In this document: in pieces, positions 49,749 through 63,688 of the stretch
Layout of the letters: each line of letters opens with the position of its first letter
Numbering within the stretch: position 1 is the stretch's first letter
NCBI RefSeq assembly: GCF_002020355.1
Contig: NZ_MPZV01000001.1
Location: 1,116,001 to 1,180,000 of the forward strand
Direction of reading: 5' to 3'
DNA: 64,000 bases
Source of the DNA: Thioclava sediminum
GTDB taxonomy: Bacteria > Pseudomonadota > Alphaproteobacteria > Rhodobacterales > Rhodobacteraceae
Made by a program: the position numbers and the translations under genes
The notes under the pieces: generated by a model
What the model saw: only the letters and a program-made list of their open reading frames with translations
Database searches by the model: none
What the model was told of the DNA's origin: nothing

Positions 49749-50624
49749 ATGAAGACAAGGTATTCCTTTGGCGGCGACGAGCACGTCTATGTCGAGGTCG
49801 ACGAGGAGATGTCGCTCGAAGCCTTCTTCGTAGCACTGTCGCTGCGCAACGCCGTGGCCGAGGCGAACATTCCCGGCGTGACCGAGATTTGCCCCGCCAA
49901 TGCCAGCTTTGAAGTGCGCTTCAACCCCGACGTGATCTCGCCCGACGAGATGATGGCGCGGATCAAGGAGCTCGAGCACAAGGCCGAGGCTGGCGAGAAG
50001 CGCCTTGATACACGGATCGTCGAGGTCCCGGTCTATTTCCAGGACCCCTGGACCCACGAGACCCTGATGCGGTTCCGCGAACGCCATCAGGATCCGGAGG
50101 CGTCCGATCTCGAATATGCCGCGCGGATCAACGGCTATGACAGCGTGGAGGCTTTCATCGAGGCCTATCACTCGCAGCCGTGGTTCGTCTCGATGGTGGG
50201 TTTCGTGGCGGGTTTGCCCTTCCTTTACCAACTCGTCGAGCGCGAGAAGCAGATCGAGGTACCGAAATACCTGCGCCCCCGGACCGATACGCCCAAGCAC
50301 ACGGTCGGTATCGGCGGCTGCTTCGGCTGCATCTACTCGGTGCGCGGCGCGGGCGGCTACCAGATGTTCGGCATCACCCCGATGACGATCTTCGATCCGA
50401 CCCAGACCGTCTCCTATCTGCAAGACTTCATGGTCTTCTTCAAACCCGGCGACATCGTGAAGTGGAAACCGATCGACCGCGCCGAGTTCGACCGGATCGA
50501 GGCTGCCGTGAAAGACGGCACCTATACCCCCCGCATTGCCGAAGTGACCTTCGATCTCGAAGCGTTCAACGCCGATATGGCGGGCACCAATGCGAAACTG
50601 ATGGAGGCCCTCAATGGCGTTTAA
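49749..50624 (+). CDS. pxpB: 5-oxoprolinase subunit B (KipI/carboxyltransferase N-half-like)
   Basis: Protein of 291 residues of the carboxyltransferase C/D (KipI) type; signatures DEEMSLEAFFVALSLRNAV near 16, VEVPVYFQ-like VPVYFQDPWTHETL near 95 and the late VGIGGCFGCIYSVRGAGGY near 182. Here it is longer than the 220-residue KipI, as in the CT domain of urea carboxylase. It forms a heterodimer with PxpC; their genes overlap by 11 bases. Confidence 0.9.
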   Translation: MKTRYSFGGDEHVYVEVDEEMSLEAFFVALSLRNAVAEANIPGVTEICPANASFEVRFNPDVISPDEMMARIKELEHKAEAGEKRLDTRIVEVPVYFQDPWTHETLMRFRERHQDPEASDLEYAARINGYDSVEAFIEAYHSQPWFVSMVGFVAGLPFLYQLVEREKQIEVPKYLRPRTDTPKHTVGIGGCFGCIYSVRGAGGYQMFGITPMTIFDPTQTVSYLQDFMVFFKPGDIVKWKPIDRAEFDRIEAAVKDGTYTPRIAEVTFDLEAFNADMAGTNAKLMEALNGV

Positions 50625-51582
50625 GGTTGTCAAACCCGGCCTGTCGACGACGATCCAGGATCTTGGTCGTCCGGGCTATTTCCATCTCGGCATTCCCGAA
50701 GGCGGCGCTATGGATCGCTTCGCGATGCGGGTCGCCAACATGCTGGTCGGCAATGACGAGGCCGAGGCCGGTCTGGAAGCCGTCTTCATGGGCCCGGAAC
50801 TGACGTTCGAGGATGACACGCTCGTGGCCGTCACCGGGGGCGAGATGCCGATCATGGTAGATGGCGAGCCGCGCGAGAGCTGGTCCTCCTTCGTCGTGAA
50901 GGCCGGTCAGACGCTGAGCTTCGGGTTCCTGAAATCCGGCGCACGCATCTACATCGCCTTCGGCGGCGGGATCGACACGCCGAGCGCGCTCGGCTCGCGC
51001 TCGACCTATCCGATCGGCGCGCTTGGCGGGGTCGAGGGCCGCGCCATTGCGGCGGATGACGTGATCCCGGTCGGCAAGTCCAAGGGCATGACCGAGCGCA
51101 CGCTCGACAAGGCGCTGCTCGCCCCGGTCGATACCCCGGTCAGCCTGCGGGTCCTCCCGGGCCTCTACTGGCACCGGCTGACCCCGGCCTCGCAGGCGCA
51201 GTTCTTCGCCGATGAATGGACCGTCGCCCCCGAGGCGGACCGGATGGGCTATCGCTTCCGCGGTGGCGCGCCGATGGAATTCGTCGAGCGTGAACAGCCC
51301 TTCGGCGCGGGCTCCGACCCGTCCAACATCGTCGATGGCTGCTATTCCTACGGCTCGATCCAGGTGCCGGGCGGACAGGAGCCCATCGTGCTCCATCGCG
51401 ATGCGGTCTCGGGCGGGGGCTACTTCACCCTCGGCGCGGTGATCTCGGCCGATATGGACCTGATCGGGCAGCTGCAACCCAACACCAAGGTGCGCTTCGT
51501 CGAAGTGACCATGGAACAGGCACTGGCCGCGCGCACCGCACGCCGCGAACGGCTCGACAAGATCCGCGCCGCGCTCGGGTAA
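50614..51582 (+). CDS. pxpC: 5-oxoprolinase subunit C (KipA/biotin-dependent carboxyltransferase)
   Basis: Protein of 322 residues of the carboxyltransferase A/B (KipA) family. It opens with VVKPGLSTTIQDLGRPGYFH, has GIPEGGAMDRFAMRVAN near 26, IAFGGGIDTPSALGSRSTY near 112 and the typical VPGGQEPIVLHRDAVSGGGY near 250. Its gene start lies inside the end of pxpB. Homologous to the second half of the urea-carboxylase CT domain. Confidence 0.92.
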   Translation: MAFKVVKPGLSTTIQDLGRPGYFHLGIPEGGAMDRFAMRVANMLVGNDEAEAGLEAVFMGPELTFEDDTLVAVTGGEMPIMVDGEPRESWSSFVVKAGQTLSFGFLKSGARIYIAFGGGIDTPSALGSRSTYPIGALGGVEGRAIAADDVIPVGKSKGMTERTLDKALLAPVDTPVSLRVLPGLYWHRLTPASQAQFFADEWTVAPEADRMGYRFRGGAPMEFVEREQPFGAGSDPSNIVDGCYSYGSIQVPGGQEPIVLHRDAVSGGGYFTLGAVISADMDLIGQLQPNTKVRFVEVTMEQALAARTARRERLDKIRAALG

Positions 51583-51664
51583 ATCCCGGGCGCCCCGCGC
51601 CGACGCTATTCCACAAGCGGGGACAACCCGCGATCAAACCAAGCAACAGAGAGGTCTCTGAACA

Positions 51665-52735
51665 ATGAAACATGTCCTGACATCCGTCGCGCTTCTGGGC
51701 GCTACGTGTGCCGCGCTCCCGGCCATGGCCGAGGATGCGTGGTTCCCCTACCCCGCCGAAGAGGTCGTCCCGGCCTTCTCCGCCGATGGCACCGCCCAGC
51801 CCATCGAATATGAGGCGCTGGCCAAGGCCGACAAGGATTACAAGATCTGCGTCTCCTTCCCGCATATGAAAGACGCCTATTGGCTCGGCGTCGATTACGG
51901 TGTGACCGAAGAGGCCAAGCGCGAAGGCGTCAGCCTGAACGTGGTCGAGGCCGGTGGCTACACCAACCTCGCCAAGCAGATCAGCCAGATCGAGGACTGT
52001 GCCGCCGGTGGCGCGCAGGCGGTCATCATCGGGGCGATCTCCTATGACGGTCTGAACTCGGTCGTGAAGGAACTGGCCGACAAGGACATCCCGGTCATCG
52101 ACCTCGTCAACGGCATGTCCTCGCCCGACCTCGCGGCCAAGTCGCTCGTCTCCTTCGAGACGATGGGCAAAGAAATCGGCTCCTACCTCGCGCAGAAGCA
52201 CCCCGAGGGCAGCGACGAAGTGACCGTCGGCTGGTTCCCGGGCCCGGCAGGCGCCGGTTGGGTCGAAGCCGCGAACAAGGGCTTCATGGAAGCCGTGAAA
52301 GGCTCGGCCGTGAAAGTGCTCGAGCCGCGCTACGGCGATACCGGCAAGGAAGCCCAGCTCAAGCTCGTCGAAGACGTGCTGCAGGCGAACCCGGAAGTGA
52401 GCTACATCGCGGGCACCGCGGTGACTGCGGAAGTAGCACAGGGCCTGCTGCGCGAGCGCGGCCTGACCGACAAGGTCGGCAACCTCGCCTTCTACCTGAC
52501 GCCCGGTGTCTATAGCGGCATCCAGCGCGGCTTCATCGAGGCAGCCCCGGCGGACTCGATGGTCATCCAGGGCCGGATCGCGGTCGATCAGGCGGTGCGG
52601 ATCCTCGAAGGCAAGGACTATGTCAAACATGTCGGTCCGAAGATTTTCGTCATCACCAAGGACAATATCGAAGACACGCCGCGTTCCGCGGTGCTGCCCC
52701 CGGACGGCTTCCAGCCGGTCTTCTCGGTGAACTGA
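51665..52735 (+). CDS. TorT-like periplasmic binding protein of an ABC importer
   Basis: Periplasmic binding protein of 356 residues with a Sec signal (LTSVALLGATCAALPAMA). It follows the TorT pattern: AWFPYPAEEV start, KICVSFPHMKDAYWLGVDYG near 62-81, GGYTNLAKQISQIEDCAAGG near 97. TorT senses TMAO in E. coli, but here the gene lies directly before sugar-type ABC ATPase and permease genes, so it acts as a transport receptor. Ligand presumably the substrate of the PxpA-C/biotin enzyme. Confidence 0.88.
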   Translation: MKHVLTSVALLGATCAALPAMAEDAWFPYPAEEVVPAFSADGTAQPIEYEALAKADKDYKICVSFPHMKDAYWLGVDYGVTEEAKREGVSLNVVEAGGYTNLAKQISQIEDCAAGGAQAVIIGAISYDGLNSVVKELADKDIPVIDLVNGMSSPDLAAKSLVSFETMGKEIGSYLAQKHPEGSDEVTVGWFPGPAGAGWVEAANKGFMEAVKGSAVKVLEPRYGDTGKEAQLKLVEDVLQANPEVSYIAGTAVTAEVAQGLLRERGLTDKVGNLAFYLTPGVYSGIQRGFIEAAPADSMVIQGRIAVDQAVRILEGKDYVKHVGPKIFVITKDNIEDTPRSAVLPPDGFQPVFSVN

Positions 52736-52741
52736 CGACCC

Positions 52742-52775
52742 GCGGCGCCGGCCCTCCCCCTTCCGCCGGCGCCGC
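52742..52775 (+). terminator. Intercistronic hairpin after the TorT-like gene
   Basis: Perfect 10-base arms (52742-52751 and 52766-52775) with a 14-base pyrimidine-rich loop between the binding-protein stop and the ATPase start. It parallels the hairpin at 1754-1783 and probably sets a higher level of binding protein than of ATPase. Confidence 0.6.
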
Positions 52776-52800
52776 CAATTCCTGCCCTGGGAGACAGCAA

Positions 52801-54327
52801 ATGACGAGCAAACCGCTTCTACAGGCGCATGGGCTGAGCAAGGCCTATCCGGGTGTCCTCGCCCTCGATGCCGTCGATTTCGACCTCTATGCGGGTGAGC
52901 TGCATGTGCTGTTCGGTGAGAACGGCGCGGGGAAATCGACGATGATCTCGCTGCTGGCGGGCGCGAATACTCCGACTTCCGGCACGATCGAGATGCGCGG
53001 CGAGCCAGTCCAGTTCGCCTCGGTGGCCGATGCGCAGGCCAAAGGCATCCATACCGTTTTTCAAGAATTCTCGCTGATCCCGACGATGAGCGTGGCGCAG
53101 AACATGTTTCTGGGCCACGAGCCGGGTGTCGGCCCCTTCCTGTCGCCGCGCGCGATGCGCCAACGGGCAAAGCAGATCCTGACCGATCTGAACTTCGACA
53201 TCGACCCGGACCTGACCGTGGCGCGCCTGTCGCGGGCGCAACAGCAGATGGTCGAGATCGCGAAGGCGATGCAGGGCGATCTGTCGGTCCTGATCCTCGA
53301 CGAGCCCACCGCCTCGCTGACCGATCGCGAGGTCGATCAGCTCTTCGAGGTGATCGGGCGGCTCAAATCCGAGGGTGTGGGGATCATCTATATCTCGCAC
53401 CGCGTGCATGAATTCGAGCGCATCGGAGAGCGCGTGACCGTGCTGCGCGACGGCGCGCATATCGGCACCGCGCCGATGGCCGAGATGACCGAGCAGTCGC
53501 TCGTGGACATGATGGCCGGGCGCGAGATCCGCGACATCTACCCGAGCATCGCCCATACGCCCGGCGAAGTCGTCCTCGACGTGCAAAACCTCAGCGCTCC
53601 CGGTATCGATCATGCCTCCTTCGAGGTGCGCCGGGGCGAGGTGCTGGGCGTCGCGGGCCTCGTGGGCTCGGGCAAGTCGCGGCTGTTCCGCTCGGTGATG
53701 GGGCTCAACCCGACCCATGCCGGGCAGGTCCGCTTCAAGGGCCGGGACGTCACCGGCGCGCAGACCCGCAAGCTGGTGAAGGCGGGCGCGTGGTATCTCT
53801 CGCCCGACCGCAAGCATGAGGGCCTGATCCTCGCCGAGACGCCGCGCGGCAATCTGGTGATGGATCTGATGGCCGAGGGCGGCCCGCTGCTGCGCTCGCG
53901 TCAGCTGAGCACCCGCGCGGCGGAAATCTTCGGCCATGTCGAACTGCATGAGAGCTACCGCAGCCGCGTCGTCGGCAAGCTCTCGGGCGGCAATCAGCAG
54001 AAGGTGCTGTTCGGCAAGGCCTTCGGGCATAAGGCCGATCTCTACATCTTCGACGAGCCGACCGTGGGCGTCGACATGGGCACCCGCGCGGCGCTCTACC
54101 GGCTGATCGCGGAACTGGCCGAGGCCGGAAAGGCCGTGGTGGTGATCTCGTCGGATCTGCCAGAGGTGATGAACCTCGCCCACCGCGCCATCGTGCTCGC
54201 CAATGGCAAGATCACCGCCGAGCTGCCGCGCGAGGATCTGCGCGAGGACATCGTCCTGCGCTATTTCTTCGACCAGCCCGGCGCCTCCCAACAGACACAA
54301 AAAGACACAGAAGGAAGCCCCGCATGA
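52801..54327 (+). CDS. Sugar-type ABC transporter ATP-binding protein (RbsA/XylG-like, two domains)
   Basis: Fused two-domain ATPase of 508 residues. Domain 1: Walker A FGENGAGKST near 40, signature LSRAQQQMVEI near 144, Walker B VLILDEPTASL near 162. Domain 2: a non-canonical P-loop GLVGSGKSRLF near 287, signature LSGGNQQKVLFGKAF near 396, and Walker B LYIFDEPTVGVDM near 416. It energises the permease encoded 4 bases into its own end. Confidence 0.92.
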   Translation: MTSKPLLQAHGLSKAYPGVLALDAVDFDLYAGELHVLFGENGAGKSTMISLLAGANTPTSGTIEMRGEPVQFASVADAQAKGIHTVFQEFSLIPTMSVAQNMFLGHEPGVGPFLSPRAMRQRAKQILTDLNFDIDPDLTVARLSRAQQQMVEIAKAMQGDLSVLILDEPTASLTDREVDQLFEVIGRLKSEGVGIIYISHRVHEFERIGERVTVLRDGAHIGTAPMAEMTEQSLVDMMAGREIRDIYPSIAHTPGEVVLDVQNLSAPGIDHASFEVRRGEVLGVAGLVGSGKSRLFRSVMGLNPTHAGQVRFKGRDVTGAQTRKLVKAGAWYLSPDRKHEGLILAETPRGNLVMDLMAEGGPLLRSRQLSTRAAEIFGHVELHESYRSRVVGKLSGGNQQKVLFGKAFGHKADLYIFDEPTVGVDMGTRAALYRLIAELAEAGKAVVVISSDLPEVMNLAHRAIVLANGKITAELPREDLREDIVLRYFFDQPGASQQTQKDTEGSPA

Positions 54328-55331
54328 TGCAGGCCAATTCCAAGCCTTCGCTGGCGGCGCTGCCGCTGCGTATCTTCATCAAGCTCGGCGTGCTGCCGTT
54401 CTTCCTCATCGCGGCCGTCGTGATCTTCACCCTCGCCGCGCCGAACTTCCTGTCGCCGCAGAACCTGATCAACGTGGCGCGACAATCGGTCTATCTGGTG
54501 CTGGTTTCGCTGGGCCAGATGCTGGTGCTGATCTCGGGGGGCTTCGACCTCTCGGTGGGCACGGTGATCGCGCTCAGCTCCGTCGTCTCGGCGCTGGCGA
54601 TGACATGGGCCGCACAGATTTTCCCCGATGCGATCTGGCTCGTGATCCTGATCGGCGCCTTTGCAGGCTTCGCGGTCGCGCTGATCGTGGGCGCGGTGAA
54701 CGGGATCGGCGTCGCGCTGTTCGACGTCTCGCCCTTCATCATGACGCTGGGTGTCTCGTCTGTCGGGACCGGGCTTGCGCTGTTCCTGACCGGGGGCGTG
54801 CCGGTTTCGGGCCTGCCCTTCGCCTTTGGCGACACCTTCGGCTTCGGCCGGGTGTTCGGAGTTCCCGTGCCCGTGGTGATCGCCGTGATCGCCATCATCG
54901 TGATGTGGGTGCTGATGGCCCGCACCCGCGTCGGCGCCCGCATCTATGCCGTCGGCGGCAACATCAAGGCGGCCCATTTGTCGGCGATCAACACCCGCGG
55001 CACGCTGATCCTCGTCTATGGGCTTTGCGCCGTGATCGCGGCCCTGACCGGTCTGTTGCTGACCGCGCGCGTCGAGAGCGGCGATGCGAACCTTGGCGGC
55101 ACGATCGCAATGGAGAGCATCGCAGCCTGCGTCATCGCCGGGGTCTCGCTGCGCGGCGGGATCGGCCGGGTGGAGAATGTCGTGCTCGGCGCGTTCTTCA
55201 TCATCCTGATGCAAAACGGGATGAACCTCGCGCAGGTCAGCTCCTACATGCAGATGGTGCTCATCGGTCTGTTGCTCATCTGCGCCGTGATCTTCGACCA
55301 GCTGCGCTACCGGATGATCGTGAAGGGCTAA
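54324..55331 (+). CDS. Sugar-type ABC transporter permease (RbsC-like)
   Basis: Inner-membrane permease of 335 residues with eight to ten helices. Family signatures: LVSLGQMLVLISGGFDLSVG near 58-77, GAVNGIGVALFDVSPFIMTL near 127, ARTRVGARIYAVGGNIKAAH near 195 and GIGRVENVVLGAFFIILM near 279. Its start overlaps the ATPase stop by ATGA. Last gene of the pxp-ABC operon, closed by a terminator. Confidence 0.92.
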   Translation: MMQANSKPSLAALPLRIFIKLGVLPFFLIAAVVIFTLAAPNFLSPQNLINVARQSVYLVLVSLGQMLVLISGGFDLSVGTVIALSSVVSALAMTWAAQIFPDAIWLVILIGAFAGFAVALIVGAVNGIGVALFDVSPFIMTLGVSSVGTGLALFLTGGVPVSGLPFAFGDTFGFGRVFGVPVPVVIAVIAIIVMWVLMARTRVGARIYAVGGNIKAAHLSAINTRGTLILVYGLCAVIAALTGLLLTARVESGDANLGGTIAMESIAACVIAGVSLRGGIGRVENVVLGAFFIILMQNGMNLAQVSSYMQMVLIGLLLICAVIFDQLRYRMIVKG

Positions 55332-56112: not shown

Positions 56113-57183
56113 TCAGTTCAGCTCGGTCGCACGCTCTGCATCGACGGTCTTCGATGCCTGATCGACGGCTGATTGCAGATCATCGAATACTTCGCCACCG
56201 TTCTGGACGTTGTCCTTGAACCAGCCATAGACCGGCTTCGCCGCGTCCTGGAACTGCTGCTTTTCCTCGGGCGTCGGCACGTATATCTCGCCGCCGTCCT
56301 TCTTGAACTCCTCGTAAGCCGCGATCGACTTGCGCTTCGGCGAGGCGAACGTCGCCTGCTGGAGCGCCGCGAACCCGTCCACGATCACACGCTGCATGTC
56401 GGGCGACATCTCCTTGAACTTTTGGTTGTTCATCCACCACAGCGCCGCCATGTAGGCATGCCCGTCGAGCGTCAGATGCTTCAGCCCGGCCTCGGGGAAT
56501 TTCATGTTCATGATGTCGGTGATGCCGTTCTTGGTGCCGTCCACAACGCCGGTCTGCATCGCGGTGAACAGCTCCGGCCACGGGATCGGGGTCGGCGAAG
56601 CACCCATCGCCTTCACCAACTCTTGCGGCAGGTCGGCGACGATGGTGCGGATCTTCATCCCCTTCAGATCTGCGGGCGTCTTCACCGTCTTCTTGGTGTT
56701 GGCGAAGTTGCGCCAGCCGCCGGTATTCCCGATCGTCATCAGGCGGATCATGTCGTCGCTATCCGCCAGCGCCATCTTGCGCAGCTCCGAGGTGAAGTCG
56801 GTATGGGTCAGCGCTTCCTCGGCCACCCGGTCGTTCGGCATCAGATACGGCAGGTCGAGGACCTGCACGTAAGGAAAGATCCCCGCGGCGCCGCCCGAGG
56901 TCGAGATGTAGATATCGAGCGAGCCATCCGCGATGCCCTGCAGGCACTCCGCCCCGTTCGAGCAGAGCTGCGTGCCGATGAAGAGGTCGACCTTGATCTT
57001 CCCGTTCGAGGCATTCTCGACATAGTTCTTGAACACGACGAGACCGTCGTAATCCTCGTCATTGGTGTTGGAGTTGGCGACCGCGCGCAGCGTGATCGTA
57101 TCGTCCTGAGCCTGCGCGGCCATGCCGAGCCCCGAGGCCAGCACGGCCCCCAGCGCAAGCGATTTCACAAAAGTTCTGAGCAT
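56113..57183 (-). CDS. dctP: TRAP transporter substrate-binding protein (DctP family)
   Basis: Periplasmic receptor of 356 residues: signal peptide (VKSLALGAVLASGLGMAAQA), then a DctP fold with GIADGSLDIYISTSGGAAG near 84, VLDLPYLMPNDRVAEEAL near 107, TPADLKGMKIRTI near 170, ALGASPTP-like AMGASPTPIPWPEL near 190 and TGVVDGTKNGITDI near 208. The conserved arginine that clamps a ligand carboxylate is expected in KIRTIVAD. A carboxylate or sulfonate ligand is inferred from the family. Confidence 0.92.
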   Translation of the reverse strand: MLRTFVKSLALGAVLASGLGMAAQAQDDTITLRAVANSNTNDEDYDGLVVFKNYVENASNGKIKVDLFIGTQLCSNGAECLQGIADGSLDIYISTSGGAAGIFPYVQVLDLPYLMPNDRVAEEALTHTDFTSELRKMALADSDDMIRLMTIGNTGGWRNFANTKKTVKTPADLKGMKIRTIVADLPQELVKAMGASPTPIPWPELFTAMQTGVVDGTKNGITDIMNMKFPEAGLKHLTLDGHAYMAALWWMNNQKFKEMSPDMQRVIVDGFAALQQATFASPKRKSIAAYEEFKKDGGEIYVPTPEEKQQFQDAAKPVYGWFKDNVQNGGEVFDDLQSAVDQASKTVDAERATELN

Positions 57184-57213
57184 CGTTTCCTCCCTATATG
57201 CTTCAGTCTTGTC

Positions 57214-58503
57214 TTAGTTGGCGAACCCCGTCAGGCGGGGGATGGTCATCGAAATCGCGGGAAAATAGGTAATCAGGAAGATCACGGCCACTTCGACCGC
57301 GAGGAACGGCAGGATCGCGCGGGCGATGGTCTCGACCCGCTCTTTCGAGACGGCGGCGGCGACGAACAGCACCAGCCCCATCGGCGGCGTCGCGAGGCCC
57401 ACGGTCAGGTTCACGCTCATGATGATCGCGAAATGGATCGGATCGACGCCGAGCCCGGTGAAGATCGGCGCGAGGATCGGTCCCAGCACGATGATCGCCG
57501 GGCCCGCGTCGAGGAACATGCCCACGATGAACAGCAGGATATTGATCAAGAACAGCAGGATCAGCGGGTTCTGCGACAGGCCGAGGATGAATTCCGCCAG
57601 CGCCTCGGGGGCGTGCGCAAGGCTGACGACGGTCTTGAACGCCATCGCCGCGCCCACCAGCAAAAGCACCACCGAAGAGGTCAGCCCCGCCCGCATCAGG
57701 ATATGCGGCAGGTCGCCCCAGCGCAGCGTGCGCAGGATGAAGAGACCGACGATCAGCGCATAGGCCACGGCGATTGCCGCCGCCTCGGTCGGCGTGAAGA
57801 CACCGCCCAAGATACCGCCTAGAATGATCACCGGCGTCATCAGCGGGAAAAACGCGCGCAAGGATGCCTGCCCGCGCTCGGGCCAGGTGTGTTTCTTCGA
57901 GGCGGGGGGAAACCCGTGTTTGTTGGCCATGAACTTGACCATCAGCATCAGCCCGATACCGACGAGCGCCCCTGGCACGATCCCCGCGAGGAACAGCGCC
58001 GCGACCGACTGGCCCATGACATAGGCGTAGATGATCATGATGCCCGAAGGCGGGATGATCGGGCCAATCACCGAGCTGGCCGCGGTGATGGCGGCGGCGA
58101 ATTTGCGGGTGTAGCCCTGCTGTTCCATCGCCGGGATCAGCATCGAACCCAGTGCCGAAGTGTCGGCCACCGCCGAGCCCGAAAGCCCCGCGAACAGCAT
58201 CGAGGACAGGACATTCACATGCGCGAGCCCGCCGCGCAGATGGCCCATCATCGCTTCCGAGAACTCCACCAGACGGCGCGTGATGCCGCCCGAATTCATC
58301 ATCTCGCCCGCCAGCATGAAGAACGGGATCGCGAGCAGCGGGAAGCTGTCCATCCCGTTGTAAAGGTTGCGGTAAAGCAGCGCGAAATCGCGCTCTTGCC
58401 CGTTCAGGAGCAGCATCGCGCCGGGCGCTGCCAGAAGCGCGAAGAAGATCGGGAAGCCGATCAGGATCAGGACGAGGAAAAGGGGCAGGAACCAGACCAG
58501 CAT
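57214..58503 (-). CDS. dctM: TRAP transporter large permease (DctM family)
   Basis: Sodium-coupled membrane subunit of 429 residues with about twelve helices, opening with MLVWFLPLFLVLILIGFPIF. Signatures: PFFMLAGEMMNSGGITRRLV near 63, PSGIMIIYAYVMGQSVAALF near 148 and MFLDAGPAIIVLGPILAPI near 327. The ATG at 58503 overlaps the small-permease stop (ATGA); a long in-frame extension upstream is not homologous. Confidence 0.93.
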   Translation of the reverse strand: MLVWFLPLFLVLILIGFPIFFALLAAPGAMLLLNGQERDFALLYRNLYNGMDSFPLLAIPFFMLAGEMMNSGGITRRLVEFSEAMMGHLRGGLAHVNVLSSMLFAGLSGSAVADTSALGSMLIPAMEQQGYTRKFAAAITAASSVIGPIIPPSGIMIIYAYVMGQSVAALFLAGIVPGALVGIGLMLMVKFMANKHGFPPASKKHTWPERGQASLRAFFPLMTPVIILGGILGGVFTPTEAAAIAVAYALIVGLFILRTLRWGDLPHILMRAGLTSSVVLLLVGAAMAFKTVVSLAHAPEALAEFILGLSQNPLILLFLINILLFIVGMFLDAGPAIIVLGPILAPIFTGLGVDPIHFAIIMSVNLTVGLATPPMGLVLFVAAAVSKERVETIARAILPFLAVEVAVIFLITYFPAISMTIPRLTGFAN

Positions 58504-59090
58504 CACTCGGCCCCTCCGGCGACGGACCAGACCGGCGGCAGCGGATCGTCTCCGGTGCGGAAGGCGAGCAGATTGCGCAGGATCAGCTCGATATTGACCA
58601 GCACGAGAAGCGCGAAGCCCACCACTAGCGAGGCCATCATCCAGCTCCGCGGCACGCGAATCCAAGCGTCGAAGGCCAGATTTTCCGGCACCCAGAGCGA
58701 GGCGGTTGCGAATTTCCCGCCAAAGCCGGTGATCCCGGCCCAGCCGAGTTTCAAAGCCGCGACCGAGACCAGCAGCGAGAACATCAGCAGCACCAGTGTC
58801 AGCGTGCGCCCCACCAGCTTGGGCAGCATCACCGCCAGCATGTCGATCGCCACGAAGCCGCCAGAGCGAAACGCCGAGGGCGCCATCAGCCCCGCCATCC
58901 ACAACATGCAGAACCGCGCCGCCTCATCGGGCCAGGGTAGCGCGCTATTGAGCACATAGCGGAACCAAATCTGGATCAGGATCGCGATGACCATCGCCGC
59001 CACGGCAAAGACACCCGCCCACCGTCCGATGGCGAGCAGGATGTCGTTCAGCCGGACGAGCGGTCTCACCAGAATTGTCAGCAGGGTCAT
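58503..59090 (-). CDS. dctQ: TRAP transporter small permease (DctQ family)
   Basis: Membrane subunit of 195 residues with four helices (about 18-40, 55-72, 95-117, 145-168) and the DctQ motif FRYVLNSALPWPDEAARFCM near 43-62. It pairs with the large subunit encoded immediately downstream. A gap of 82 bases separates it from the flavin reductase gene upstream, so the transporter and enzyme genes may share a transcript. Confidence 0.92.
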   Translation of the reverse strand: MTLLTILVRPLVRLNDILLAIGRWAGVFAVAAMVIAILIQIWFRYVLNSALPWPDEAARFCMLWMAGLMAPSAFRSGGFVAIDMLAVMLPKLVGRTLTLVLLMFSLLVSVAALKLGWAGITGFGGKFATASLWVPENLAFDAWIRVPRSWMMASLVVGFALLVLVNIELILRNLLAFRTGDDPLPPVWSVAGGAE

Positions 59091-59172
59091 GCGCGCGTTT
59101 CCTCCCTCGCGATCCCTTGGAGGCCCGGCGCCACGCTCCTCCTGCGCGGTCCGGGCCGGATATGTCAGCGCC

Positions 59173-59694
59173 TCAGTTCATCTCGATCCGCCGCACCTGC
59201 CCACGGTAGAAGGCCAGCGCGTCACCATCGTCGCGCATCACCGCGCGCTCGACTTGACCCAGCACCAGCAGGTGATCGCCGCCCTCGTGGCAGGCTACGC
59301 GATGACATTCGAAGCGCGCGAGACAGCCGTCGATCAGCGGCACGCCATGATCGTTGAGGTGATAGGCGTGATCGAGCAGCGCATGGGCATTCTTTGTCGT
59401 GGCAAAGCACAGATCGTCCTGATCGGCGGCGAGCACGTGGATCGCGTAATGCTCCGCGTTCTCGAAATGCACGAAGCGGCGCGAGTTGCGATCCGGGGCC
59501 CAGATCACCAGCGGCGGATCGAGCGAGACCGAAGAGAAACTGTTCGCCGTGATCGCGACAGGGCCGTTCTCGCTGGCGGCGGTCACGATGGTGATGCCCG
59601 TGGCAAACCGCCCGAAGGCGTCGCGCAGCAAGCGGGTATTCTCTGGGCCCGGCACGAAAGTGCGCGGGGTGAACTGGCGGGTTGCGTTCATCAT
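59173..59694 (-). CDS. Flavin reductase (HpaC/SmoA-like)
   Basis: FMN/FAD reductase of 173 residues that would supply reduced flavin to the monooxygenase encoded two genes upstream. Signatures: AFGRFATGITIVTA near 25, ANSFSSVSLDPPLVIWAPDR near 47, HYAIHVLAADQDDLC near 79. Starts at ATG 59694 and overlaps the aldo/keto reductase stop (ATGA). In the known sulfoquinovose oxidative pathway this role belongs to SmoA; that match is by gene order and class, not proven. Confidence 0.9.
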   Translation of the reverse strand: MMNATRQFTPRTFVPGPENTRLLRDAFGRFATGITIVTAASENGPVAITANSFSSVSLDPPLVIWAPDRNSRRFVHFENAEHYAIHVLAADQDDLCFATTKNAHALLDHAYHLNDHGVPLIDGCLARFECHRVACHEGGDHLLVLGQVERAVMRDDGDALAFYRGQVRRIEMN

Positions 59695-60581
59695 GGGACC
59701 TCCTGACCGAGCCCGGCCTCGTAGAGGCGGAACCACGTCTCCCTGTCGATCTGCACCTTCATCGCATCGGAAAGCTTCGCGATCCGCTCGAGATTGTTCG
59801 TCCCCATCACCGGGATGATCCGCGCCGGATGCGCCAGCAGGAAAGCGGTCGCGACAGCTGCACGATCTACGCCTTGCGCCTGCGCGATCTCATCAAGAAC
59901 GCTTTGCACGCGACCCTCTCCCGTCATCAGCGCGCCGCCGCCCAGTGGCGACCACGCCATCGGGGGTTGGGACTGACGCTGGTGGAAGGCCAGATCGCCA
60001 TTGGTGAAGGGCTGCAGGCAACCGAGGCTAATCTCGATCTGGTTGGTCACCAGCGGCGTCTTCATCCCCGATTGCAGCAACTCCCAGTCCCACGGGCGGA
60101 AGTTCGACACGCCGACCGCGCGCACCTTGCCCGAGGCGACCAGATCATCCAGCACAGCCCCAGTCTCGTGGTGATCAATCAGCGGATCGGGGCGGTGGAT
60201 CAGCAGCAGGTCGATCCGGTCGGTGGCCAGCTCCCGCAGCGAGGCCTCGACCGAGGCTTCGATATGCGCGCGCGAGGTGTCGTAATGCTTCACCTTGCGA
60301 TGCGAATGACGGCCCGCCGCGACGATGATGTCGCATTTCGTGACGATCTCCATCTGATCGCGCAGCGACGGATCCTCGCGCATCGCCGCGCCGAAGACCC
60401 CCTCCGCCGTGTAGCCGCCATAGATATCGGCATGGTCGAACGTGGTGATCCCCTGCGCCAGACAGGCGTCGATCTTGGCGCGCACATGGGCGGGCGAGGT
60501 ATCGGCATCGTCGGCGAGCCGCCACATGCCATAGACGATCCGGCTGAGCGCGACATCCGAGGTAAGGTCGATCTTTTCCAT
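59691..60581 (-). CDS. Aldo/keto reductase (YdhF-like, SmoB-like by context)
   Basis: NAD(P)H-dependent reductase of 296 residues. The tetrad is visible: Asp-Tyr in TFDHADIYGGYTAEG near 50, Lys in EIVTKCDII near 83 and His in LLIHRPDPL near 130. C-terminal cofactor loop IPVMGTNNLERIAKL near 262. It sits between the flavin reductase and monooxygenase genes, with 1-4-base overlaps. In the sulfo-SMO pathway the AKR SmoB reduces 6-dehydroglucose to glucose; an analogous role is inferred. Confidence 0.9.
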   Translation of the reverse strand: MEKIDLTSDVALSRIVYGMWRLADDADTSPAHVRAKIDACLAQGITTFDHADIYGGYTAEGVFGAAMREDPSLRDQMEIVTKCDIIVAAGRHSHRKVKHYDTSRAHIEASVEASLRELATDRIDLLLIHRPDPLIDHHETGAVLDDLVASGKVRAVGVSNFRPWDWELLQSGMKTPLVTNQIEISLGCLQPFTNGDLAFHQRQSQPPMAWSPLGGGALMTGEGRVQSVLDEIAQAQGVDRAAVATAFLLAHPARIIPVMGTNNLERIAKLSDAMKVQIDRETWFRLYEAGLGQEVP

Positions 60582-61735
60582 TAGCGGCGTTCCCCTTCTG
60601 CGAGCGGTGTTGCCGGCGGCCCCATCGGGACGCGACCATAGATTTCGGGCAGCGAGACCGTGTCGAGATGCGGCATCACAAGACGGCCGAACTGGCGAGC
60701 CTCGTCGATATGCGGATAGCCCGACAGGATGAAGGCGCGAATGCCCATCTTGCGATATTCCTCGAGCTTCGTGAGCACCTGATCGGCCGAGCCCACCAGC
60801 GCCGCGCCGCAGCCCGAACGCGCGCGCCCCACCCCGGTCCAGAGGTTCGGCTCGACATAGCCGCTCTCATCCGCGATCTCGCGGTTGCGCGCCTGCTTCG
60901 ACACGCCGAGCGAGCCCGCATCATGCGCCCGCTCGCGGATTTTCCGGCCTTCCTCGTCATCGAGCTTCGAGACAAGTTCCTGCGCGTATTCCTTCGCCTC
61001 GGCCTCGGTGTCGCGCACGATCACATGGACTCGCAGCCCGTAGTCGAGAACGCGCCCGTGCCGCTCGGCGGCCTCGTTGACCACCTTCATCCGGCCTTCC
61101 AGCTCTTCCTTCGTCTCGGGCCACATCAGGTAGACGTCGCAATGCTCTGCGCACAGCTCGACCGCCGCCGGGGAATAGCCGCCGAAATAGAGAAGCGGGC
61201 CGCCCTGCTGATAGGGCTTCGCCGGGTCGGTCGTGAGGCCTTTGAAATTGTAGACCTGACCTTCGTAATTGATCTCGTCTTGGGTCCAGGCCTGCTTGAG
61301 GATCTCGACCACTTCACGCGAGCGCTGGTAGCGGAATTCGCTCTCTTCCTTCTCGCCCGGGAAATCCGACGAGATGATATTCACCGTCAGACGCCCTTCG
61401 AGCATATGGTCGAGCGTCGCGATGGTGCGCGCCAGCATGATCGGCTGCATCTCGCCGCAGCGCACGGCGGCGAGGAAATTCATCCGGTTGGTGATCTGGC
61501 TGGCGCCGGCCACAAAGCTCAGCGTGTCTTGGCCCACCTGATAGCTCGACGGGCACAGAATGTTGCGGAAGCCCTGCCGCTCGGCCTCTCGCACGATGTC
61601 GGAACAATGCGCCCAGCTGGAGCGGAGATCGCCCTCGGGCTGGCCGAGATAGCGGTAATCATCCGAACACAGGGCAGAAAACCAGGACACCTCCGCGGCA
61701 TCGAGATCACCCGATCTCACCGGCACAACAGTCAT
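60581..61735 (-). CDS. SsuD-like LLM-class flavin-dependent monooxygenase (SmoC-like by context)
   Basis: FMNH2-dependent bacterial-luciferase-like monooxygenase of 384 residues. Signatures: LAAVRCGEMQPIMLARTIAT near 107, GRLTVNIISSDFPGEKEES near 131, LLYFGGYSPAAVELCAEHCD near 184, and the SsuD-type ARSGCGAALVGSADQVLTKL near 302. SsuD relatives cleave C-S bonds of sulfonates. Start ATG 61735 (MTVVPVRSG). First gene of the minus-strand enzyme operon and divergent from a GntR regulator. Confidence 0.9.
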   Translation of the reverse strand: MTVVPVRSGDLDAAEVSWFSALCSDDYRYLGQPEGDLRSSWAHCSDIVREAERQGFRNILCPSSYQVGQDTLSFVAGASQITNRMNFLAAVRCGEMQPIMLARTIATLDHMLEGRLTVNIISSDFPGEKEESEFRYQRSREVVEILKQAWTQDEINYEGQVYNFKGLTTDPAKPYQQGGPLLYFGGYSPAAVELCAEHCDVYLMWPETKEELEGRMKVVNEAAERHGRVLDYGLRVHVIVRDTEAEAKEYAQELVSKLDDEEGRKIRERAHDAGSLGVSKQARNREIADESGYVEPNLWTGVGRARSGCGAALVGSADQVLTKLEEYRKMGIRAFILSGYPHIDEARQFGRLVMPHLDTVSLPEIYGRVPMGPPATPLAEGERR

Positions 61736-61786
61736 GCGTTCCTCCCTCGCGATTCCCGTTCGATTTCCCTTCACTTAGCAGCCGCC

Positions 61787-61811
61787 TTGATATAGATCAA
61801 TACTGTATCAA
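61787..61811. promoter_or_regulatory. Candidate GntR operator between the monooxygenase and regulator genes
   Basis: Inverted repeat TTGATA (61787-61792) and TATCAA (61806-61811) in an AT-rich pocket of the 92-base divergent gap; the left half also forms TTGAT-ATAG-ATCAA. Ends 17 bases before the regulator start, well placed for repression of both directions. Confidence 0.55.
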
Positions 61812-61827
61812 TTTTTGAGGCGACCAA

Positions 61828-62544
61828 GTGACACAGGCAAATCAAGGATCAGAGCGCACCGGACTGCCGATCTACAAGCAGGTTTCCGAAGTGCTGATTC
61901 GAGATATCGCGGCGGGCCGGCTGACCGACGGGGAGCGCCTGCCCCCCGAACGGACGATGGCCGCGCAGCTGAAGATCGCAGTGGGCACGCTGCGCCGCGC
62001 GCTGGAGGATCTGGAAGAAAAAGGCCTGCTGGAGCGCGTGCAGGGCTCCGGCAATTACATCCGCACCCGCAACCTGCGCGACCATTTCTACTCCATGCTG
62101 CGGATCGAGCTCCTGTCGGGCGGCGGCTTTCCGAATGCGCGCATCCTCTCGGTCGATGTGATGGACAAGCCCCCCGACCTGCCGGAGTTTGGCACGTCCA
62201 AGCGCGCGAGCCGGGTGCGCCGCCTCCGCTTCCTCGACGAGACGCCGGTCGCGGCGGAGGAAATCTGGCTCGACGCCTCGAAAGGCGAGGTGAAGGCCGA
62301 GGATCTCGAAGACTCGCTTTACGCCTATTACCAACGCGCGCTCGGCTTCTGGATCGCGAGCGCCGAGGATCGTGTGAGCTTCGCACCGATGCCGGACTGG
62401 GGGCCGTCGGAACTGGCCTGCCGCCCCGGTGAGACCGCTGGCTATATCGAGCGCTTCAGCTGGGCCGACGGCCCTGCCCCGGTCGAATTTTCGCGCACAT
62501 GGTTCGACACCAGCCGCGCACATTACGTTCAACGCATGAGATGA
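61828..62544 (+). CDS. GntR family regulator (HutC/UTRA type)
   Basis: Repressor-type regulator of 238 residues. Winged helix at about 12-78 (LPIYKQVSEVLIRDIAAGRL, LPPERTMAAQLKIAVGTLRR) and a UTRA ligand domain from about 95. UTRA domains bind small metabolites, often sugar phosphates. The start is GTG at 61828. Divergent from the monooxygenase operon and upstream of a Gfo/Idh/MocA gene, so it likely controls both. Confidence 0.9.
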   Translation: MTQANQGSERTGLPIYKQVSEVLIRDIAAGRLTDGERLPPERTMAAQLKIAVGTLRRALEDLEEKGLLERVQGSGNYIRTRNLRDHFYSMLRIELLSGGGFPNARILSVDVMDKPPDLPEFGTSKRASRVRRLRFLDETPVAAEEIWLDASKGEVKAEDLEDSLYAYYQRALGFWIASAEDRVSFAPMPDWGPSELACRPGETAGYIERFSWADGPAPVEFSRTWFDTSRAHYVQRMR

Positions 62545-62554
62545 GGAGGCTCGG

Positions 62555-63688
62555 ATGAGCGTCACCAAGACGGGACCCGTTCGCTACGGCATGATCGGCT
62601 GCGGCATGATGGGACAGGAACACCTGCGCAATATTGCGCTGCTGGACGGGGCGGAGGTCGCGGCGATCTTCGAGCCTGACGCGAAGATGGCGCAGGCGGC
62701 GCAGACGCTCGCCCCAGGGGCGCAGATGGTGGGATCGATGGCCGATTTACTGGCGGTGGAGGCGCTCGACTGCCTCGTGATCACCAGTCCAAATTTCCGA
62801 CATCTCGAACAGCTTGAAGAAATCGCCGCGACCCGCCCGCTGCCGGTGCTCGTGGAAAAGCCGCTTTTTACCGATCCGACCCATGCCGAGCGGCTGCAAG
62901 CCTTCCGCGACAACTACCCCGCCCCGGTCTGGGTGGCGATGGAATATCGCTACATGCCGCCGATCGCGGCCTTCCTCGACGAGGCCGAGGCTGCGACGGG
63001 CGGGATCACCATGCTCACCGTGCGCGAACACCGTTTCCCCTTCCTGTTCAAGGTCGGCAACTGGAATCGCTTCAACCGCTACACGGGCGGCACCTTCGTC
63101 GAGAAATGCTGCCATTTCTTCGACCTGATGCGGCTTGCCCTGAAATCCGAGCCGGTGCGCGTCATGGCCTCCGCCCCGCCCCCGGTGAACCACGTCACCG
63201 AGGCCGACGCGCCCGATATCCTCGATGCGGGATATGCCATCATCGAATTCGCAAGCGGCGCACGGGCGATGTTGGAGCTGTGCATGTATGCCGAGGGCGC
63301 GCGCTATCAGGAGGAGGTCACCGCCGTCGGACCCAAGGGCAAGATCGAGGCGCTGGTGCCCGGCCCGACCCGGTTCTGGCCCGCGCATCTGGGCGCGCCG
63401 CCGGTGCCGAAACTGGTGATCTCGCCGCGCGATCCGAAAGGCCCGGTGGAGCGCGAGCTGCCGGTGCCCGAGGAACTGCTCGCCGCGGGCGATCACAACG
63501 GGTCCACCTATCACCAGCATGTAGGCTTCATCGCCCTCGTGCGCGGGGAGCGCAGCGCGCCTGAGGTCACGCTGGAAGATGGCTGGGCTGCCGTCGCTAT
63601 CGGCCAAGCGGTGCAGCGCTCGATCGAGACCAGCGAGGTGGTGCGCCTCGCCGACCAGCCTTGGCAGCGCGTGAGCCAAGACGCCTGA
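62555..63688 (+). CDS. Gfo/Idh/MocA family oxidoreductase
   Basis: NAD(P)-dependent sugar/polyol oxidoreductase of 377 residues. Rossmann site YGMIGCGMMGQEHLRNIAL at 11-29, the catalytic EKP motif in VLVEKPLFTDP near 107 and GGTFVEKCCHFFDLMRLAL near 173 (the conserved His). Follows the GntR gene by 10 bases with GAGGAGG as ribosome site. Acts on inositols or sugars in relatives; in this cluster it may handle the carbohydrate released after desulfonation (inference). Confidence 0.9.
   Translation: MSVTKTGPVRYGMIGCGMMGQEHLRNIALLDGAEVAAIFEPDAKMAQAAQTLAPGAQMVGSMADLLAVEALDCLVITSPNFRHLEQLEEIAATRPLPVLVEKPLFTDPTHAERLQAFRDNYPAPVWVAMEYRYMPPIAAFLDEAEAATGGITMLTVREHRFPFLFKVGNWNRFNRYTGGTFVEKCCHFFDLMRLALKSEPVRVMASAPPPVNHVTEADAPDILDAGYAIIEFASGARAMLELCMYAEGARYQEEVTAVGPKGKIEALVPGPTRFWPAHLGAPPVPKLVISPRDPKGPVERELPVPEELLAAGDHNGSTYHQHVGFIALVRGERSAPEVTLEDGWAAVAIGQAVQRSIETSEVVRLADQPWQRVSQDA

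What the first reader, a model, noticed from the sequence alone, without database searches (positions are those of the whole stretch)
56113..63688. Sulfo-SMO-like oxidative desulfonation cluster with a TRAP importer
The sequence shows an SsuD-like LLM monooxygenase, an aldo/keto reductase and a flavin reductase in one overlapping operon. This is the enzyme trio of the known sulfoquinovose monooxygenase pathway (SmoC, SmoB, SmoA). Here it is joined to a DctPQM TRAP transporter instead of the SmoEFGH ABC importer, plus a GntR regulator and a Gfo/Idh/MocA enzyme. No sulfoquinovosidase is in the window, so the substrate may be free sulfoquinovose or another sulfonated carbohydrate. The TRAP plus SMO combination appears unusual.
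Basis: partly seen in the sequence, partly recalled or inferred. Interest (0 to 1): 0.7.

Follow-up and report, generated by a model that had tools for sequence, protein, structure and literature searches.

The report
Sulfoquinovose-degrading operon with TRAP importer
This is a complete gene set by which a marine-type bacterium probably imports the plant sulfur-sugar sulfoquinovose, cuts it free and strips off its sulfur; the set is common in its family, and relatives show the same importer in front of a second, unrelated breakdown pathway.

Summary
In detail: 56113-63688 encodes SmoC, SmoB, a flavin reductase and a DctQMP TRAP transporter, with a divergent GntR regulator and a Gfo/Idh/MocA protein. 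SmoC and SmoB score 663 and 423 bits against solved proteins that I recall as SmoC and SmoB (PDB labels differ), versus 212 bits for SsuD.

(1) A sulfoquinovosidase IS present: the Gfo/Idh/MocA gene is a GH188 NAD+-dependent sulfoquinovosidase with the published key residues; the genome has no GH31. (2) TRAP plus SMO is not unusual: 58 of 80 SmoC loci have the complete TRAP operon.

New comparative result: the same TRAP family also occurs in genomes without SmoC. In 23 of 35 such loci it lies beside GH188 and a hybrid sulfo-EMP set (21 complete). A DctP tree needs 8 switches of pathway; one origin is rejected (p-AU 0.003). The importer's substrate is therefore probably sulfoquinovose or its glycosides. 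I found no held paper saying so, but key papers were not readable.

A 25-bp operator-like site (61787-61811) is unique in the genome and conserved in relatives.

The parts
60581..61735 (-). smoC: FMNH2-dependent sulfoquinovose monooxygenase (the ORF can be read from GTG 61774; ATG 61735 matches residue 1 of 7olf)
   Evidence: 663 bits to 7olf, 649 to 7oh2, 212 to SsuD 1nqk (7olf/7oh2 = SmoC is recalled); Pfam Bac_luciferase; tree apart from two annotated SsuD
59691..60581 (-). smoB: aldo-keto reductase for 6-dehydroglucose
   Evidence: 423 bits to 7bby/7bbz, next best 216 (7bby/7bbz = SmoB is recalled)
59173..59694 (-). smoA: flavin reductase supplying reduced flavin to SmoC
   Evidence: Pfam Flavin_Reduct 115 bits; best PDB 4xhy 137 bits; named SmoA by position in the operon
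58503..59090 (-). dctQ: TRAP small permease
   Evidence: Pfam DctQ 76 bits
57214..58503 (-). dctM: TRAP large permease (start ATG 58503)
   Evidence: Pfam DctM 406 bits; NCBIfam TIGR00786 437 bits, over cut-off
56113..57183 (-). dctP: TRAP solute-binding protein, predicted to bind sulfoquinovose or its glycosides
   Evidence: Pfam DctP 195 bits; R158, R179, N219, W202 align with the anion-binding residues of 4P47/IseP and are conserved in at least 99% of the filled rows of a 106-row alignment; co-occurrence with GH188/SmoC
61787..61811 (-). operator-like site TTGATACAGTATTGATCTATATCAA between the divergent smoC and gntR genes
   Evidence: only match in the genome with up to 2 mismatches, 0 in the reversed control; 55 of 80 SmoC loci within 3 mismatches of 19 fixed positions versus 0 of 80 random places (the pattern was drawn up from these same loci)
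61828..62544 (+). GntR/HutC-type regulator with UTRA ligand domain
   Evidence: Pfam GntR 60, UTRA 71 bits; beside smoC in 80 of 80 loci
62555..63688 (+). sqgA: GH188 NAD+-dependent sulfoquinovosidase
   Evidence: 515 bits to 8zn9, 333 to 8qc2, 330 to 8qc3, next protein 59; K102, Y131, R160, L164, K166, E183, H187, H314 match ArSqgA K107, Y136, R166, L170, K172, E189, H193, H321

Best explanation
A complete sulfo-SMO (oxidative desulfonation) locus for sulfoquinovose (SQ) and its glycosides. DctP captures SQ or SQ-glycerol in the periplasm, probably clamping the sulfonate with R158/R179/N219, and DctQM imports it by ion gradient. In the cytoplasm the GH188 enzyme SqgA frees SQ from its glycoside by NAD+-assisted elimination. 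SmoC, fed with reduced flavin by SmoA, uses O2 to split the C-S bond, giving sulfite and 6-dehydroglucose. SmoB reduces that to glucose. The GntR-UTRA protein probably represses both divergent operons from the 25-bp site at 61787-61811 until a pathway sugar binds. Shown by computation: gene families, conserved residues, gene order, co-occurrence and the site. Inferred: every reaction and transport step in this organism, the direction of regulation, and the DctP ligand.
For: Matches of SmoC, SmoB and GH188 and GH188 residues (published roles). No GH31 in the genome, fitting the published complementary distribution. Layout kept in 58 of 80 loci. In 394 genomes of the family (393 genera) this DctP is in 144, and 139 of those also have SmoC or GH188; among the 230 SmoC-negative genomes, DctP and GH188 occur together in 30, DctP alone in 5, GH188 alone in 1, neither in 194. 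In 21 of 35 DctP+/SmoC- loci the TRAP operon lies beside GH188 and all three of an SqvD-type isomerase, PfkB kinase and LacD-type aldolase. DctP of the two contexts intermix (8 changes; p-AU 0.003 against one clade). Foldseek's first match of the DctP model is the isethionate-binding IseP.
Against: No experiment. The SmoC/SmoB names of the solved proteins are recalled, not shown by a call. 55 of 164 SmoC-positive genomes lack this DctP; among TRAP-less loci that I looked at, some have a sugar ABC transporter nearby, others no importer seen, so TRAP is not obligatory. One same-genus relative with SmoC at 89% identity (G013) has no such DctP. Five genomes have the DctP with neither SmoC nor GH188 over threshold, though two of these carry remnants of SMO genes and a third a flavin reductase beside it. 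The Arg/Asn site is the general TRAP carboxylate site and does not prove a sulfonate ligand. The DctP model is poor (pLDDT under 50) at residues 203-226, part of the site, and Foldseek ranks differ little. Co-occurrence p-values ignore relatedness. The hybrid sulfo-EMP reading rests on Pfam families of one locus and similarity of the others to it, not on assays.
Confidence: 0.88

Rival explanations
1. The enzymes degrade SQ, but the TRAP transporter imports something else (a sugar acid or another organic acid) and SQ enters by another route.
For: The anion-binding residues are those of general carboxylate TRAP proteins; 55 of 164 SmoC genomes do without this DctP; NCBIfam gives only a generic DctP name.
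Against: 139 of 144 genomes with this DctP also have SmoC or GH188; the TRAP operon lies next to GH188 in two otherwise unrelated gene sets, with repeated switching; the genome has 14 other DctP-family matches that could serve other acids.
Confidence: 0.1
2. The locus handles a different sulfonated sugar (for example sulfofucose, or its glycosides) by the same chemistry.
For: Sequence similarity cannot fix the stereochemistry of the sugar; other sulfosugars and their pathways exist (PMC12421959, passages).
Against: GH188 keeps all SQ contacts that I checked, and SmoC and SmoB match the solved proteins closely; the published sulfofucose clusters use other enzymes and ABC importers.
Confidence: 0.05
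3. The Gfo/Idh/MocA protein is an ordinary sugar dehydrogenase and not a sulfoquinovosidase.
For: It has the common GFO_IDH_MocA Pfam domains and NCBIfam's nearest model is inositol dehydrogenase; best PDB match 8zn9 is only called a putative oxidoreductase.
Against: 333 bits to the SQ-bound GH188 structure versus 59 to the next protein outside the three; sulfonate triad R160, L164, K166 and catalytic K102, Y131, H187, H314 all present; beside SmoC in 79 of 80 loci.
Confidence: 0.04

Closest known systems
Sulfo-SMO locus of Agrobacterium (smoABC with ABC importer SmoEFGH and GH31 sulfoquinovosidase; layout recalled, primary paper not held)
   Same: Same enzyme trio; SmoC and SmoB by match to solved proteins that I recall as belonging to this pathway
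   Different: TRAP instead of ABC importer, GH188 instead of GH31, GntR-UTRA instead of a LacI-type regulator (regulator type recalled)
Sulfo-SMO clusters of the marine Roseobacter clade with GH188 (PMC10755693, main-text parts 1-3 of 4 read; figures and supplements not seen)
   Same: Sulfo-SMO genes with GH188 and no GH31; the same bacterial group as many of the relatives here
   Different: Nothing certain; the text I read names no transporter or regulator for them, and I could not see the drawn neighbourhoods
GH188 SqgA of Flavobacterium and Arthrobacter (8qc2, 8qc3)
   Same: Sequence family and all SQ and catalytic contacts checked
   Different: The Arthrobacter AK01 founder of the family sits in a sulfo-EMP cluster, and Arthrobacter strains have ABC importers (PMC10755693, PMC8873060)
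IseP, isethionate-binding protein of a TRAP transporter (8t9t, 8te9; PMC11668362, passages)
   Same: TRAP protein binding a sulfonate through two Arg and one Asn, conserved here; first Foldseek match
   Different: 25% identical over the aligned part, small C2 ligand, from a sulfate-reducing bacterium
Sulfo-EMP / sulfo-EMP2 sulfoglycolysis (PMC9594981, passages)
   Same: Relatives carry the same TRAP family and GH188 beside an SqvD-type isomerase (PF02952), PfkB kinase and PF01791 aldolase
   Different: The window has none of these enzymes beside its TRAP genes; it uses oxidative C-S cleavage

Membership tests
Sulfo-SMO pathway | SmoC-type FMNH2 monooxygenase | tested here: met
   663/649 bits to 7olf/7oh2 (recalled as SmoC), 212 to SsuD; separate from SsuD in a 14-row tree
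Sulfo-SMO pathway | SmoB-type aldo-keto reductase in the same cluster | tested here: met
   423 bits to 7bby/7bbz (recalled as SmoB); shares a base with smoC
[quoted passage not shown]
   Flavin_Reduct gene overlapping smoB; no close solved relative for direct comparison
Sulfo-SMO pathway | Growth on SQ with sulfite release | not testable with these tools
   needs culture
SsuD alkanesulfonate monooxygenase (TIGR03565) | Score above curated cut-off | tested here: not met
   264.5 of 518.2 bits
GH188 NAD+-dependent sulfoquinovosidase | Homology to SqgA beyond general Gfo/Idh/MocA similarity | tested here: met
   333 and 330 bits to SqgA structures, 515 to 8zn9, 59 for the next protein
GH188 NAD+-dependent sulfoquinovosidase | Sulfonate triad Arg-Leu-Lys and catalytic Lys, Tyr, His, His | tested here: met
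   R160, L164, K166; K102, Y131, H187, H314
GH188 NAD+-dependent sulfoquinovosidase | Release of SQ from SQ-glycerol | not testable with these tools
   needs enzyme assay
TRAP transporter (DctP/DctQ/DctM) | All three components, adjacent | tested here: met
   Pfam PF03480, PF04290, PF06808 over cut-off
Sulfonate-binding TRAP protein (IseP-like) | Two Arg and one Asn that hold the sulfonate | tested here: met
   R158, R179, N219, conserved in at least 99% of the filled rows of a 106-row alignment; shared with carboxylate binders, so not diagnostic
SQ-binding TRAP protein (proposed) | Binds SQ or SQ-glycerol | not testable with these tools
   indirect only: co-occurrence and gene context
GH31 sulfoquinovosidase locus | GH31 gene present | tested here: not met
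   no PF01055 match in the whole genome; 6 of 14 control genomes ring

The most novel reading that the evidence does not exclude
A TRAP transporter family dedicated to sulfoquinovose glycosides is the main SQ importer of Rhodobacterales. With GH188 it forms a fixed gateway behind which two chemically unrelated catabolic modules, oxidative desulfonation (sulfo-SMO) and a hybrid sulfo-EMP sulfoglycolysis, have been exchanged several times.
Probability: 0.7. Interest if true: 0.65.

Novelty: new variant of a known kind. Interest (0 to 1): 0.5.

Why it matters
Sulfoquinovose is made at about 10 billion tons a year (PMC10755693), and its import is called poorly characterised (PMC8873060); the binding proteins that the papers I saw mention belong to ABC importers. 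A TRAP importer shared by two pathways would give a marker for SQ use that does not depend on knowing the catabolic enzymes, tells which DctP to purify, and shows that uptake and sugar release can stay constant while the chemistry behind them is swapped. It also corrects the idea that this locus would be limited to the free sugar.

Tried and rejected
Rejected: 'no sulfoquinovosidase'. Rejected: 'TRAP plus SMO is unusual'. Set aside: the LacI/ABC/isomerase genes right of the cluster (from about L004 10.5 kb) and the ABC genes left of it (51.7-55.3 kb) as part of the system; I saw no such genes in the fixed core of the conserved clusters, so they look like separate loci. Sulfite disposal is not in the cluster; elsewhere in the genome there are 1 PF03601, 10 TauE and 2 PF00174 matches, none of which I can tie to this pathway.

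Led nowhere: none of the 10 pattern matches in viral contigs encodes a relative of SmoC; the VIA-align library was not available; a search with the code 8zn9 gave no paper on this protein, nor did one with the SmoC/SmoB codes among the 10 of 16 listed; Photobacterium pDA100 (45% DctP) has no annotated feature in the fetched stretch.

Limits of the counts. The 394-genome draw is wider but scores only the best few candidates per genome and uses fixed E-value limits (1e-100, 1e-150, 1e-70). The handle lists of those three calls were typed into the script and their totals checked against the tallies (144, 164, 192). Two of the 144 DctP (G221, G281) are only 50% identical to the window's. For the careful tree, 83 SMO rows were thinned to 40 (under 87% identity), and one long-branch sulfo-EMP row (L253), the outgroups and the rows of unclear context were dropped; the fuller quick tree gives 10 changes for the sulfo-EMP label. 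In my scripts 'EMP2' means the hybrid sulfo-EMP set, not the published sulfo-EMP2 enzymes (kinase and aldolase families differ). The script prints 17 fixed positions for the operator pattern; the right number is 19.

Papers. Read: main-text parts 1-3 of 4 of PMC10755693 and part 1 of 2 of PMC11465081. Passages only: PMC12890257, PMC13372026, PMC9594981, PMC12421959, PMC11668362, PMC11806900, PMC11659671, PMC8873060, PMC10507020, PMC12133307, PMC11968277, PMC6278857. Not held: Liu et al. 2023 (PMC9938184), Sharma et al. 2022 (PNAS) and PMC10507154; any of them may show a TRAP importer. That I found none described rests in the held library. One search listed 20 of 46 papers with both words; I looked up the word in five, where it means an instrument or a verb; the other 41 I did not open for it. 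PMC10507020 has TRAP transporters for taurine and sulfolactate and names sulfoquinovose only in a reference. One search listed 20 of 240.
Full report
What is there. On the minus strand, from 61735 down: smoC, smoB, smoA, dctQ, dctM, dctP, with overlapping ends within smoCBA and dctQM. On the plus strand: a GntR-UTRA regulator and a Gfo/Idh/MocA gene, 10 bases between them. The window lies in a 4.13-Mb genome of 8 contigs, unnamed. Relatives with the same genes that carry names are largely Roseobacteraceae, Paracoccaceae and Stappiaceae (record titles, families).

The enzymes. SmoC scores 663 and 649 bits against 7olf and 7oh2 and 212 against SsuD. It is under the SsuD equivalog cut-off and branches apart from two annotated SsuD proteins. 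SmoB scores 423 bits against 7bby/7bbz and 216 against the next protein. I recall these entries as SmoC and SmoB; their PDB labels say methanesulfonate sulfonatase, alkanesulfonate monooxygenase and aryl-alcohol dehydrogenase, and I could not confirm the names in a paper. The flavin reductase has no close solved relative (137 bits) and is named SmoA by position.

The missing sulfoquinovosidase. The Gfo/Idh/MocA protein scores 333 and 330 bits against the GH188 enzymes 8qc2 and 8qc3 (identified as SqgA in PMC10755693), 515 against 8zn9, and only 59 against the next protein. The residues that the GH188 paper names for SQ binding and catalysis and that I checked are present: K102, Y131, R160, L164, K166, E183, H187, H314. 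Its Rossmann motif begins at about residue 8, which leaves no room for a signal peptide, so it should act in the cytoplasm; if so, intact glycosides must be imported (inference). The genome has no GH31 family member. PMC10755693 reports GH188 as near-universal in sulfo-SMO clusters of the Roseobacter clade, so this part is a new member of a known kind.

How common is the TRAP version? Of 80 SmoC loci, 58 have the complete TRAP operon next to SmoC, 3 have part of it (two of them at contig ends), 7 have a sugar ABC ATPase nearby, and 12 have neither by my test (two of the 12 with only 1.2-1.3 kb left on the contig and one with 6.7 kb; two others have sugar-type ABC permeases 6-7 kb away). SmoB was scored in 79, SmoA in 73, GntR in 80 and GH188 in 79 (a later script found SmoB in 80). 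Of 28 loci from unnamed relatives with SmoC of 71% identity or more, 19 have TRAP, 4 an ABC set and 5 neither (my tally of its rows, own genome left out). Annotated examples are Ruegeria sp. TM1040, Roseicitreum antarcticum and Rhizobium sp. SL42. So the combination is ordinary in this group.

The importer is shared with another pathway. Searching for the DctP rather than SmoC gave an unexpected result. In 394 genomes of the family, spread over 393 genera, this DctP (E at most 1e-100) is in 144, SmoC in 164 and GH188 in 192. DctP with SmoC or GH188: 139; DctP with neither: 5; SmoC or GH188 without DctP: 56; none: 194. Among the 230 SmoC-negative genomes: DctP and GH188 30, DctP only 5, GH188 only 1, neither 194. 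Fisher p-values are tiny but ignore relatedness. I fetched all 35 DctP-positive, SmoC-negative loci. In 21 the TRAP operon lies beside GH188 and relatives of all three of an SqvD-type isomerase (PF02952), PfkB kinase and DeoC/LacD-type aldolase (PF01791); 2 more have GH188 and two of the three (in one of these, G281, the DctP is only 50% identical); 6 are incomplete or broken SMO clusters; 1 has GH188 and GntR only; 5 show none of this (one of them has a flavin reductase) (families named from L217). The isomerase family is that of sulfo-EMP2/TAL/TK; the kinase and aldolase families are those I recall for E. coli YihV and YihT. I therefore call it a hybrid sulfo-EMP set; hybrids are described in PMC9594981.

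The DctP of the two contexts are 60-86% identical, and 63-70% between the window and the sulfo-EMP rows (without L253), and do not form two clades. The careful tree of 62 rows needs 8 changes of context, of which well-supported branches force 6; 0% of 200 bootstrap trees have one origin; holding the sulfo-EMP rows together is rejected (p-AU 0.003). The simplest reading is that the importer serves what both pathways share, SQ or its glycosides, and that the catabolic module behind it has been swapped repeatedly.

The binding site. R158, R179, N219 and W202 align with the residues that hold the acid group in 4P47 and the sulfonate in IseP and are conserved in at least 99% of the filled rows of a 106-row alignment. 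Two cysteines, C74 and C80, are conserved to the same degree and absent from six paralogues of this genome that I aligned, one of them only 30% filled. The AlphaFold2 model has mean pLDDT 80.7 but is poor at 203-226. Foldseek's first match is IseP at 25% identity, closely followed by others, so this is only suggestive.

Regulation. Between smoC and gntR lies TTGATACAGTATTGATCTATATCAA (61787-61811). It is the only match in the whole genome with up to 2 mismatches. Near the same start sites, 55 of 80 loci have the pattern with at most 3 mismatches of 19 fixed positions and all 80 with at most 6; random places of the same length have 6 to 11. The pattern was drawn from these loci, so this is a description, not an independent test; 8 further SMO loci tried have 0 or 1 mismatch. 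In 21 sulfo-EMP loci the best place anywhere has 5 to 8 mismatches, and 19 of these 21 carry a DeoR-type gene. It is therefore probably the operator of the GntR protein (inference).

Verdict. Its interest lies in the importer: a TRAP family that genome comparison ties to SQ across two pathways, which I did not find described in the papers I could search, with the important limit that the most relevant papers were not available.

Noticed in passing
L115 14852-16081; L217 7857-9602; many loci: A MauG-like di-haem cytochrome c peroxidase gene accompanies the SQ clusters: within the fetched stretch in 41 of 80 SmoC loci, 8 of 30 loci from relatives, and 24 of 35 loci that have the DctP without SmoC. 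It occurs with both pathways; its role is unexplained. None is found in the window, its right flank or two same-genus loci.
   Followed up: partly
L151 (unnamed same-genus genome G013): Same-genus relative with SmoC at 89% identity but no TRAP operon beside it and no orthologous DctP in its genome; PHP-domain and TetR genes follow instead. A natural test of what else can import the substrate.
   Followed up: partly
L246: GH188, GntR, TRAP and MauG genes together with no SmoA, SmoB or SmoC detected: an importer plus sulfoquinovosidase without the desulfonation enzymes.
   Followed up: no
L117 7989-12420 (Spirosoma oryzicola plasmid): A SmoC-like enzyme (52% identical) in Bacteroidota lies with SusC/SusD, an amidohydrolase, an amino acid permease, cytochrome c and a SoxC-type sulfite dehydrogenase, with no aldo-keto reductase among the listed genes: possibly a different sulfonate substrate.
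   Followed up: no
L115 16088-17113; L116 14935-15894; L120 13841-14848: A gene annotated as putative sulfate exporter lies downstream of dctP in three annotated relatives; a gene in L096 near its SMO cluster is PF03601. A possible sulfite exit; the window's genome has its only PF03601 match on another contig.
   Followed up: partly
window 56113-57183: DctP residues C74 and C80 are conserved in at least 99% of the filled rows of a 106-row alignment and absent from six aligned paralogues in the same genome: a possible disulfide that marks this DctP family.
   Followed up: no
L004 10538-19110: Right of the cluster lies a LacI, sugar-binding protein, ABC permease and ATPase, sugar isomerase and Gfo/Idh/MocA locus (read, names recalled); it looks unrelated to the SQ genes.
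   Followed up: no
window 49749-55331: Left of the cluster are genes that look like the two 5-oxoprolinase subunits followed by a ribose-type ABC transporter (read from the translations, names recalled).
   Followed up: no
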